Assembly (NCBI GenBank): GCA_028277625.1
Contig: JANQFW010000091.1
Span: forward strand, 1-53,466
DNA: 53,466 bases
Source of the DNA: Candidatus Gastranaerophilales bacterium
GTDB lineage: Bacteria > Cyanobacteriota > Vampirovibrionia > Gastranaerophilales > JANQFW01
Direction: 5' to 3'
Under the pieces are notes generated by a model. It did not search any database, was not told where the DNA came from, and worked only from the letters and a program-made list of their open reading frames with translations. Positions 1 through 40,738 of the stretch are shown here, in pieces. The translations under genes were made by a program, and so were the position numbers. Numbering within the stretch: position 1 is the stretch's first letter; each line of letters opens with the position of its first letter.

Positions 1-135
1 GTTATTATTAATCCTTATGTAGACGATGTATTTTCTGCATTTTCATTTATTTCTTTGTATATAACTTTGCCATTTTATTCATTATTTTTTTTAATACTAT
101 TTTTTATAGAATTATTTAGTTCAAAATTTCTTTAA
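1..135 (+). CDS. 3' end of a small membrane protein, paralogue of the gene at 463-921 (partial)
   Basis: The first base of the window is in frame, and 44 codons run to a TAA at 133-135. The product ends in a hydrophobic segment (FSFISLYITLPFYSLFF, then further Leu/Phe/Ile residues). It matches the C-terminus of the protein at 463-921 almost residue for residue (there FSFISLYITLPCYSFFI). The gene starts outside the window. Its last 20 bases overlap the 3' end of a minus-strand coding remnant, the same overlap length as in the intact pair at 902-921. I read it as the left copy of a tandem duplication. Function unknown. Confidence 0.7.
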   Translation, partial: VIINPYVDDVFSAFSFISLYITLPFYSLFFLILFFIELFSSKFL

Positions 136-388
136 TTTCTTCTTTTGGAAATTCAATAGGTATAATTATATAATAATTTTTTATAGTTCCAATTGATTGA
201 AGCCCCCAAGCAGAACTATTAACAGTGGTCCAGAATGAACCTTTGCCGTAGTTTTTAGAAGAATAATAGTCATTATCATGATAATAACCATAGTTATAAC
301 TATCGTCATCTTTATAATATCCATGATTTAGATCAAAGTCATAAACATCAAATAAAATAATTTGATAATCACCTGAAGGATTTTTCTT
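116..388 (-). pseudogene. C-terminal remnant of a paralogue of the 576-residue protein at 902-2632
   Basis: The minus-strand frame is open from 388 to a TAA at 116-118. It encodes about 90 residues ending KNYYIIIPIEFPKEE plus a short tail. The intact neighbour ends KNYYIILPIEFSKED plus a short tail, and both carry a DVYDF motif further upstream (IILFDVYDF here, VILCDVYDF there). An in-frame stop lies at 389-391 and no start codon precedes the homology, so this is a truncated copy. Between the two shared motifs the remnant has a Tyr/Asp/Asn-rich stretch not seen in the intact gene. Upstream of 390 the sequence becomes the promoter/RBS region of the gene at 463. Confidence 0.6.
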
Positions 389-37610: not shown

Positions 37611-38678
37611 TTAATCTTTCTTATTTTCTTCATCATTTTCAACGGGATTTAATAATTCTCTTACTTTATTTTCTATATCCAAAAGCATTTCAGGATTTTC
37701 ACTCAAGTATTCTTTTACTTTATCCTTACCTTGACCAAACTTGGTTTCACCATAGTTAAACCAAGTGCCTGATTTGTTGATAACATCTAAGGAAACAGCA
37801 ATATCTATAATAGAAACAATCTTTGATATTCCTTCTCCATACATAATATCAAACTCTGCAAGTCTAAAAGGAGGGGAAACCTTATTTTTGACAACTTTTA
37901 CTTTTGTTCTACTACCAATTTCTTGGCCTTCTTTATTTTTCAAGGTTTCTTTTCTTCTAATATCAAGTCTTACACTTGCATAATATTTTAAGGCATTACC
38001 ACCTGTAGTAGTTTCAGGACTTCCGTACATTACACCAATTTTATGCCTTAATTGATTTATAAAAATAACGGTTGTTTTTGTTTTACCAACAATCGCAGTT
38101 AGCTTTCTCAATGCCTGGCTCATAAGTCTAGCCTGAAGGCCCATATGAGTATCTCCCATTTCGCCTTCAATTTCAGCCTCAGGCACAAGTGCAGCAACAG
38201 AATCTATTACAATCAAATCAACAGCACCTGATCTTACTAACTCTTCAGCAATATCAAGGGCTTGTTCTCCAGTATCAGGTTGACTTATTAATAGTTCATC
38301 AATATTAACACCAAGTCTTTTAGCATACTCAGGATCCAAAGCATGTTCTGCATCAATAAAAGCAGCAATACCACCTTGCTTTTGAGATTCTGCAACTATA
38401 TGTTGAGCTAAAGTAGTTTTACCACTACTTTCCGGGCCATAAATTTCTATAATTCTACCTTTTGGTATACCACCTATACCAAGAGCTAAATCTAAAGATA
38501 AAGCCCCTGTTGGAATAACCTCTATAGCAACAGCGGGCTTATCTCCAAGCTTCATTATAGAGCCCCTTCCAAAGTCTTTTTCTATCTTATAAATGGCTAA
38601 TTGTAAAGCTTTTGTCTTATCATTTGCTGAGGAATCGTCTTTTGTCTTTTTCTTTTTTGTTTTTTCTTCAACAGGCAT
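37611..38678 (-). CDS. recA: Recombinase RecA
   Basis: 355 residues. RecA forms filaments on single-stranded DNA for homologous recombination and repair. Walker [10 protein letters not shown] is at 81-89, and [23 protein letters not shown] and [17 protein letters not shown] are all present. The N-terminus is Lys-rich and the C-terminus acidic, as usual. The ribosome site GGAGGAGA precedes the ATG. Upstream of rny with a 202-base gap that shows no clear terminator. Confidence 0.95.
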
Positions 38679-39006
38679 TTATTCCATCTCCTCCAGAAAA
38701 ATATATATTACTAAAAATTATTATTTTAATTATCTCTAATAAATTATACTCTAAATTTTGCGTTTTAAGATTAAATTTTATTAAATTTAAGAGAGCTTTT
38801 CGATTATAAATTATTTTTAATTATTTTGCTGATGTTAAAAAAAAATAAAAATTTATTTTCAAAATTCAACTCATAAGCCAATCTGACAAACCAAATAAAA
38901 ACTTAATTAATAAACAGTAGGAAAATATACATGAACATGAGTAAATTTCATGTTTTCACAGACTTTATTTTAAGTGAATTACTATACTTAAATTTAGTCG
39001 GTAAAA
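38679..39006. other. Intergenic region with inverted repeat (328 bp)
   Basis: Holds the recA promoter (leftward) and the promoter of the prion-like gene (rightward). A perfect 7-bp inverted repeat aacatga/tcatgtt (38934-38940 and 38948-38954) lies about 55 bases before the rightward gene. I see no LexA-type box that I would trust. Confidence 0.35.
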
Positions 39007-39966
39007 ATGCATCAATACAGCAAATACCCGTATCGCAGATACAGCTCAGCTCAAACGTATAATACCTCATATTGTACACCACGCAATATGGGCTATTACA
39101 ATTATGGCAGTTCGCCTTATAACATCAAAAGACCGGCTAAATCTAAGACTAGAGGCTTTTACTCTAATTATATTGCAAAAAACAATTATAGTAACTCTTA
39201 TTACAATCAAGGCGGCTCTTATAAAACTAACAATCAAGGTACTTATAGCAACTACAAGCAGCCAACGTATCGCGTAAATAATACTAACAATAAAACTAGT
39301 ACATATTACAAACAAGGCGATTTTAATAACAAACAATCTTATCCAACTCAAGCCACAAGTAACAACCCAGCTGCTTCATATTATAACCAAGGCAACTATA
39401 ACAGCAAACAATCCTATCCGACTCAAGCCATAAATAATAATAGTAATACAACTAATCCATATTATAACCAAGGCAATTACAATAACAGACAGATATATTC
39501 TACTCCAACCGCAAATAATAGTAATAACATAAATAACTCATATTATCGCCAGGCTGCTTATAGCAATTACAAGCAACAATACCAAACTCAAGCCGTAAGC
39601 TATAATAAAAATCAACCATTTTATAATCCCAGCAGCAGAAATACTTCAACAAATAGCAATTATGCTGCAAATTATTACAACAAATCTTCAACATCCCTAA
39701 TAAAGAATAAAGAAGATGTTGAAGATGTTGAAGATATTTTAAAAGGCATAGTAGACTACATTACCAGCTGTAATAGCTTACCTAAAATATATAAAAACGG
39801 TATTTTTAAACTTCAAAAATTAGCAAAAAAATATCCTGATCAAGTCAGAAAAACTGTATTACAACTTAGACAGTATGAAAGAATGAATAAAAGAGCTATT
39901 AGCAGCGACTTATCATTGCAGTTTCAAATAATATTAAGCCACACAAAAAAAAGAGAGAGAGTGTAA
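39007..39966 (+). CDS. Prion-like Asn/Tyr/Gln-rich repeat protein
   Basis: 319 residues, no family recognised. Residues 1 to about 230 are almost entirely Asn, Tyr, Gln, Ser and Thr. They contain an imperfect repeat (YYNQGNYNSKQSYPTQA at its best copy), with copies beginning near nucleotides 39304, 39379 and 39460 and a weaker one near 39541. The composition resembles yeast prion-like and phase-separating domains. The last about 90 residues differ: acidic KEDVEDVEDILKGIV, then a predicted helical, basic domain. No signal peptide is seen, so it is probably cytoplasmic or secreted non-classically. Codon use is like its neighbours. Role unknown. Confidence 0.65.
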   Translation: MHQYSKYPYRRYSSAQTYNTSYCTPRNMGYYNYGSSPYNIKRPAKSKTRGFYSNYIAKNNYSNSYYNQGGSYKTNNQGTYSNYKQPTYRVNNTNNKTSTYYKQGDFNNKQSYPTQATSNNPAASYYNQGNYNSKQSYPTQAINNNSNTTNPYYNQGNYNNRQIYSTPTANNSNNINNSYYRQAAYSNYKQQYQTQAVSYNKNQPFYNPSSRNTSTNSNYAANYYNKSSTSLIKNKEDVEDVEDILKGIVDYITSCNSLPKIYKNGIFKLQKLAKKYPDQVRKTVLQLRQYERMNKRAISSDLSLQFQIILSHTKKRERV

Positions 39967-40186: not shown

Positions 40187-40738
40187 ATGATCTTTCCACT
40201 AAAAGCACTTTGCATTAGCTTATGTATGTTTTTGTTCTTTTTACACTCTACCTCCCACGCCATAGCTAATAACAGCTATAAAAACAGTGCAGTTTACAGG
40301 CAAGCTGTGTCTGGCGATGTAAAGGCGCAGTATTCCCTTGGTAATATGTACCATTTTTCAAAAAAATATAAAAAAGCATTAAAATGGTACAAAAAAGCAG
40401 CACTAGAAGGCAATCCAAGTGCCCAATATAAACTTGGGACAATGTATGAACACGGACATGGTGTATCTCAAAACAACGACAAAGCATTAAAATGGTATAA
40501 ACAAGCTGCATTGCGAGGCTATACATTTGCACAACATAAGCTTAATTCCATGCAAAATGCAGAAACCATGGCAATACAAGATCTTTTAAACAAACAAAAA
40601 TGGGTTGAAAAAGCTGCCAAGGAAGAAACTATAAATATACAGGAGAAAAGCAACCCCATAGCAGAGCAGCAGATAGAAAAACATTCTAAAGATCATTTAA
40701 AAGCACTAAAGTGGTACAAAAAAGAAACTAAAAAATAA
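40187..40738 (+). CDS. Secreted Sel1-repeat protein
   Basis: 183 residues. A signal peptide (LCISLCMFLFFLHSTSHA, about 8-25) is followed by two to three Sel1-like repeats of about 36 residues (GDVKAQYSLGNMYHFSKKYK; GNPSAQYKLGTMYEHGHGV). The rest is a Lys/Glu-rich helix. Sel1 repeats form solenoids for protein contacts in the periplasm or at the surface. The repeat consensus ALKWYKKA recurs three times, the last as a stub at the C-terminus. Confidence 0.8.
   Translation: MIFPLKALCISLCMFLFFLHSTSHAIANNSYKNSAVYRQAVSGDVKAQYSLGNMYHFSKKYKKALKWYKKAALEGNPSAQYKLGTMYEHGHGVSQNNDKALKWYKQAALRGYTFAQHKLNSMQNAETMAIQDLLNKQKWVEKAAKEETINIQEKSNPIAEQQIEKHSKDHLKALKWYKKETKK

What the first reader, a model, noticed from the sequence alone, without database searches (positions are those of the whole stretch)
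39007..39966. Bacterial prion-like protein with 17-residue repeats and a folded C-terminal domain
Seen: about 230 residues of Asn/Tyr/Gln/Ser with repeat units near YYNQGNYNSKQSYPTQA at least three times, then an acidic hinge and a helical basic domain. Prion-like domains of this composition are rare in bacteria. Inference: a condensate- or amyloid-forming protein whose C-terminal domain sets its partner; the repeats are slippage-prone and likely vary in number.
Basis: partly seen in the sequence, partly recalled or inferred. Interest (0 to 1): 0.6.

Follow-up and report, generated by a model that had tools for sequence, protein, structure and literature searches.

The report
Tyrosine-rich prion-like bacterial orphan protein
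A gut-type cyanobacterial relative (order Gastranaerophilales) encodes a protein made of a floppy, tyrosine- and asparagine-rich repeat tail and a small folded helical head, a layout typical of proteins that gather into droplets; it is real and under selection, but so far known from only two species of one genus and of untested function.

Summary
ORF 39007-39966 (+, 319 aa) has a 229-residue Asn/Tyr/Ser/Thr/Gln-rich disordered region with a repeated ~17-residue core on a ~25-27-residue period, then a ~90-residue basic four-helix domain. It passes a Q/N count, a PAPA-type score (narrowly) and an approximate PLAAC-type score. One orthologue exists at the same place (recA | gene | Sel1-repeat gene) in the only other genome held of its genus: 248 aa, fewer repeats, same composition (Tyr 17.5 vs 17.9%). 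Tyrosines are retained above shuffled and neutral expectations while Ser/Thr are not: sticker-and-spacer behaviour. No homologue in 381 other order genomes, a class sample, phages, plasmids or viral contigs; no Pfam, NCBIfam, PHROG or PDB relative. Best reading: a genus-restricted cytoplasmic condensate scaffold, positively charged, more likely liquid than amyloid. 'Rare in bacteria' is overstated: surveys find several prion-like proteins per proteome, and a ~10% sample of this genome shows two more. Repeat number does differ between species. New member of a known kind; function untested. In passing: an order-wide, single-copy FUS/RGG-like zinc-ribbon protein looks more interesting than the finding itself.

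The parts
39007..39966 (+). Whole gene, 319 aa prion-like protein
   Evidence: syntenic orthologue L011:7160-7906
39007..39693 (+). N-terminal Tyr/Asn/Ser/Thr/Gln-rich disordered region (res 1-229), net charge about +22
39304..39354 (+). Repeat core copy 1 (res 100-116, YYKQGDFNNKQSYPTQA)
39379..39429 (+). Repeat core copy 2 (res 125-141, YYNQGNYNSKQSYPTQA)
39460..39510 (+). Repeat core copy 3 (res 152-168, YYNQGNYNNRQIYSTPT)
39541..39594 (+). Degenerate repeat copy 4 (res 179-196, YYRQAAYSNYKQQYQTQA)
39694..39963 (+). C-terminal acidic hinge plus basic four-helix domain (res 230-319), 65% identical in the orthologue over 91 columns
38928..39006 (+). Conserved upstream block, nearly identical in the two species although most of the rest of the intergenic region has diverged; probable promoter/regulatory region
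   Evidence: no sigma-70 consensus match on this strand there
38934..38954 (.). Perfect dyad AACATGAGTAAATTTCATGTT, candidate operator; its inner form ACATGA-N7-TCATGT is perfect at only this place in each of the two genomes

Best explanation
A genus-restricted, probably cytoplasmic scaffold protein. The disordered N-region is a sticker-and-spacer low-complexity domain: about 40 evenly spread tyrosines (with ~9 Arg as auxiliary stickers) on Asn/Ser/Thr/Gln spacers, with a strong positive charge. Many copies would associate through Tyr-Tyr and Tyr-Arg contacts and with polyanions (RNA, DNA or acidic proteins) into a condensate, while the small basic four-helix C-domain anchors it to a client or nucleic acid. 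Shown: gene, domain layout, composition, repeat variation, preferential tyrosine retention, synteny. Inferred: disorder in solution, condensation, cytoplasmic location, client binding.
For: Composition (18.8% aromatic, 55% NQSTG, 11% ionizable) is close to the published description of prion-like low-complexity domains (60-70% polar, 15-20% aromatic, evenly spread aromatics, composition and aromatic patterning conserved while sequence varies; PMC9748015). Aromatics are more evenly spaced than in shuffles (window 20: fraction at or below observed 0.002; orthologue 0.08). Tyr is kept at 23/28 to 24/27 aligned positions, against a shuffled-alignment mean of 0.59 (max 0.78) and a neutral-simulation mean of 0.55 (max 0.75); Ser 8/19 and Thr 4/16 lie close to the shuffle level. 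Tyr content is 17.5 and 17.9%, while neutral drift predicts 12.5% (max 17.0%). AlphaFold2: N-region essentially without structure, C-domain four helices. dN/dS about 0.2 for both parts. No signal-peptide-like hydrophobic N-terminus (MHQYSKYPYRRYSS, read directly).
Against: Only two sequences exist, so all evolutionary tests rest on one comparison, and synonymous sites are near saturation in the N-region (dS 2.0). MAFFT favours Tyr-Tyr pairing; the shuffle control addresses this only in part. No condensate predictor or experiment was run. Aromatic evenness in the orthologue is only a trend. The C-domain has no convincing fold match (Foldseek best E 0.99), so its partner is unknown. Lysine is a weaker sticker than arginine (PMC9748015).
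Confidence: 0.5

Rival explanations
1. A true prion/amyloid switch: the N-region converts between soluble and self-propagating amyloid and so turns the C-domain's activity on or off, as proposed for Clostridium botulinum Rho.
For: Q+N 32 in 80 residues; PAPA-type score 0.079 (orthologue 0.052) above 0.05; approximate PLAAC-type score 33 (orthologue 35), above the cut-off of 20.
Against: PAPA is barely above threshold, and 23 Lys/Arg sit in the N-region, although charged residues are depleted in yeast prion domains and lysine is the most prion-inhibiting residue in the PAPA table (my knowledge). The PLAAC-type table was from memory and approximate.
Confidence: 0.12
2. An extracellular or surface matrix/adhesive protein, its Tyr/Asn repeats forming a cross-linked or adhesive layer.
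For: Tyr-rich repeats with changing copy number are common in structural proteins (my knowledge); the neighbouring Sel1-repeat gene has a signal-peptide-like N-terminus and evolves as fast (dN/dS 0.20).
Against: No signal peptide or transmembrane segment can be read in either orthologue (and the window ORF); the C-domain is basic and lysine-rich; nothing ties the gene to an export system.
Confidence: 0.15
3. Low-complexity filler from AT-rich mutation and repeat slippage; only the C-domain matters.
For: The genus is AT-rich and the Asn/Tyr codons AAT and TAT dominate; the N-region differs in length between species.
Against: Other AT-rich-codon residues are scarce (Ile 2.2%, Phe 1.3%, Lys 6.1%). 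Tyr is retained well above the neutral simulation. dN/dS about 0.2 in the N-region.
Confidence: 0.15

Closest known systems
Prion-like low-complexity domains of eukaryotic RNA-binding proteins (FUS, hnRNPA1 type)
   Same: Aromatic content, polar spacers, even aromatic spacing, composition kept while sequence drifts, disordered tail joined to a folded domain.
   Different: Asn-rich and Gly-poor; markedly positive; no recognisable RNA-binding domain; likeness is of composition, no homology was tested.
Clostridium botulinum Rho and Campylobacter hominis SSB prion-like domains
   Same: Bacterial N- or Q-rich disordered domain attached to a folded domain; patchy distribution, as described for bacterial prion-like families in PMC6400439.
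   Different: Those sit on conserved nucleic-acid-binding proteins and have experimental amyloid data (PMC11175392); here the whole protein is an orphan and the C-domain function is unknown.
Bacteroides thetaiotaomicron Rho (phase-separating, gut bacterium)
   Same: A gut bacterium's protein reported to phase-separate in vitro (as told in PMC11175392).
   Different: A conserved termination factor; no relation to the present protein was tested.

Membership tests
Prion-like low-complexity domain (compositional class) | 30 or more Q+N in 80 residues | tested here: met
   32 (orthologue 31)
Prion-like low-complexity domain (compositional class) | PAPA score at or above 0.05 in a region with negative FoldIndex | tested here: met
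   0.079 and 0.052 in a re-implementation with weights from memory; the second is marginal
Prion-like low-complexity domain (compositional class) | PLAAC LLR of 20 or more | tested here: inconclusive
   33.4 and 35.2, but with an approximate frequency table from memory
Prion-like low-complexity domain (compositional class) | Aromatic 15-20%, evenly spaced, composition kept across orthologues | tested here: met
   18.8% and 17.9%; even in the window protein, a trend in the orthologue; Tyr retained
Phase-separating scaffold | Forms condensates in vitro or in cells | not testable with these tools
   needs purified protein or imaging
Bacterial prion (Rho, SSB type) | Self-propagating amyloid state | not testable with these tools
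   sequence only
Bacterial prion (Rho, SSB type) | Prion-like domain on a conserved nucleic-acid-binding protein | tested here: inconclusive
   C-domain is basic, with no family match and no fold match of significance; binding unknown
Family of the order-wide zinc-ribbon low-complexity protein (L153) | Shared C-terminal domain | tested here: inconclusive
   profile-profile comparison gave no relation (probability 0.5%, 15 columns), but the present family has only two members

The most novel reading that the evidence does not exclude
A new, genus-specific bacterial condensate scaffold: a polycationic tyrosine-sticker domain on a previously undescribed four-helix domain, controlled from its own conserved operator, and so a case of a eukaryote-like sticker-and-spacer domain evolving as a dedicated bacterial protein rather than as an extension of a housekeeping enzyme.
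Probability: 0.3. Interest if true: 0.55.

Novelty: new member of a known kind. Interest (0 to 1): 0.38.

Why it matters
Only three bacterial prion proteins are experimentally characterised in detail (PMC11175392), two of them with prion-like domains on conserved nucleic-acid-binding proteins. A stand-alone protein in which tyrosines are preferentially retained while spacers drift would be a simple test of whether the sticker-and-spacer rules worked out on FUS and hnRNPA1 arose independently in bacteria. I know of no culture of this genus, so a heterologous test would be needed.

Tried and rejected
Homologues beyond the genus: a profile search of 383 order genomes gave only chance-level hits outside the genus; the best, L099, lies on an unrelated 240-aa protein encoded directly after a sigma-factor-like gene. 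Class sample of 289 genomes: only the window's own gene. Viral contigs, phages, plasmids and genome contigs: nothing. Weak sigma-factor-like hits in the order rejected as chance. Fold search: best Foldseek E 0.99 to a designed binder; VIA-align Z up to 9.5 against designed helical repeats, within what helical bundles give by common arrangement; rows for the LEDGF integrase-binding (TFIIS N-terminal-like) domain were not pursued. PDB profile hits (best E 0.0027, 24 residues of a designed protein) rejected. A sigma-28-type promoter from TTTAGTCGGTAA: rejected, the motif is not enriched in the genomes (control counts are higher) and I see none before the MCP gene. Rfam: none. Relation between the finding's C-domain and the L153 family: not supported.

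Full report
What is there. It lies between recA (37611-38678, opposite strand, so divergently transcribed) and a gene for a secreted-looking Sel1-repeat protein (40187-40738), in a stretch with RNase Y, YmdB, PHP, TrpG, CoaE and RibD genes (names other than RecA, Sel1 and the MCP are my reading of the sequences). The closest named RecA relatives include Candidatus Gastranaerophilales (73% over residues 1-343, L026), and the order around it, with many genera of ~2-Mb genomes, fits Gastranaerophilales; the exact taxon is inferred.

Composition and repeats. Residues 1-229: N 20.5, Y 17.5, S 13.1, T 9.2, Q 8.3%, with 23 Lys/Arg and one Asp/Glu. 32 Q+N in 80 residues; PAPA-type score 0.079; approximate PLAAC-type score 33. 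Among 298 ORFs from the window plus a 280-kb sample of the same genome, three reach the PLAAC-type cut-off and two reach both cut-offs. The repeat core of 17 residues recurs with a period of 25-27 residues; the best self-match is 13 of 17 against at most 10 in 200 shuffles. At DNA level the copies are ~76% alike, so this looks like an old, drifting array rather than a slippage hot spot.

The orthologue. The only other genome held of the genus (G001) has a 248-aa protein in the same place. Its N-region is 162 residues with the same composition (N 21.0, Y 17.9, S 14.2), PAPA-type 0.052 and Q+N 31. The C-terminal 91 columns are 65% identical. dN/dS is about 0.2 in both parts, against 0.04-0.13 for the conserved neighbouring genes and 0.20 for the Sel1 gene. 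Tyr is retained at 82-89% of aligned positions; shuffled controls give 59% (max 78%), a neutral simulation 55% (max 75%), and neutral drift would have lowered Tyr content to 12.5%. Ser and Thr are not clearly retained above controls. Aromatics are evenly spread. These are the features described for sticker-and-spacer prion-like domains (PMC9748015). The limit is that this is one comparison of two sequences with near-saturated synonymous sites.

Structure. The C-domain is predicted as four helices at 6-26, 30-47, 49-66 and 72-85 of the 91-residue construct, pLDDT 80 from two sequences. In the full-length model residues 1-237 are below pLDDT 50 and, apart from one six-residue helix at 219-224 and the start of the first C-domain helix, without secondary structure. 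Neither Foldseek nor the second alignment gave a match that stands out.

Distribution. No homologue in the other 381 of 383 order genomes, the class sample, viral contigs, phages or plasmids. Of 30 recA loci across the order, 29 could be read; only the two of this genus show a Q/N-rich ORF upstream of recA. It is a genus-level orphan as far as searched.

Regulation. About 80 bp before the start codon are nearly identical between the two species, while most of the rest of the intergenic region has diverged. Within it is a perfect 7-bp dyad, AACATGAGTAAATTTCATGTT; its inner form is perfect at only this place in each genome, although the total number of sites with up to one mismatch equals the control. 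A gene-specific operator is plausible, not shown.

How it most likely works. A cytoplasmic scaffold whose N-region drives multivalent association and whose C-domain binds a client; its positive charge suggests an anionic partner such as RNA or DNA. Amyloid switching is possible but less likely, given the lysines and the borderline PAPA-type score. An extracellular structural role and neutral filler are the other rivals.

'Rare in bacteria' is not right as stated: 6,469 bacterial proteomes hold on average 11.0 PAPA/PLAAC predictions and 4.3 N/Q-rich disordered proteins each (PMC6400439). Repeat number varies between species, as predicted; strain-level variation could not be checked.

A more interesting neighbour in the same genome. 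The sample turned up L153:149-1312 (-), a 387-aa protein with an N-terminal zinc ribbon, about a dozen GGYGNRPQQ-like repeats and a strongly conserved C-terminal pair of ~60-residue repeats. Its C-terminal part is found once per genome in 73 of 79 order genomes, including all 69 good ones; in a phylum sample of 194 all 85 matches listed are of this order. In 29 of 30 loci read, the low-complexity linker is present and rich in G, Y, Q, N, R and P (the exception, L210, begins 130 bases from the end of its contig and is probably cut off). No Pfam or NCBIfam model reaches its cut-off. Profile comparison shows no relation to the finding.

Noticed in passing
L153:149-1312 (-), i.e. G000:C45; relatives L197-L226: Order-wide, single-copy protein (73/79 order genomes, 69/69 good ones, no match outside the order in a phylum sample): zinc ribbon, FUS/RGG-like Tyr/Gly/Gln/Asn/Arg low-complexity linker of variable sequence, and a pair of strongly conserved ~60-residue helix-turn-helix-like repeats. 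No Pfam or NCBIfam family. Worth its own study as a bacterial condensate-type nucleic-acid-binding candidate.
   Followed up: partly
L165:1908-3344 (+), G000:C129: 479-aa protein with ~28-residue Asn/Gln-rich repeats (SNVTQSNNSLGSSLSSLFQNQMNQNFGG) and EF-hand-like DTNKDG/DINGDG motifs; highest PAPA-type score of the sample (0.139).
   Followed up: no
38934-38954: Perfect dyad AACATGAGTAAATTTCATGTT in a conserved upstream block; the only perfect occurrence of its inner form in each of the two genomes.
   Followed up: partly
40187-40738: Neighbouring Sel1-repeat protein with a signal-peptide-like start evolves as fast as the finding (53% identity, dN/dS 0.20), unlike the other neighbours compared; the two may belong together.
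   Followed up: partly
119-388 (-): Tyr/Asp-rich 90-residue open stretch (DDDSYNYGYYHDNDYYSSKNYGKG) near the window's start; PAPA-type score 0.028.
   Followed up: no
L147:8833-10251 (-) and L147:10330-13560 (-): Two adjacent large Tyr-rich ORFs with similar starts (EEYN/EYNDDGQ-like stretches), possibly repeat-containing surface proteins; the larger one has a PAPA-type score of 0.089.
   Followed up: no
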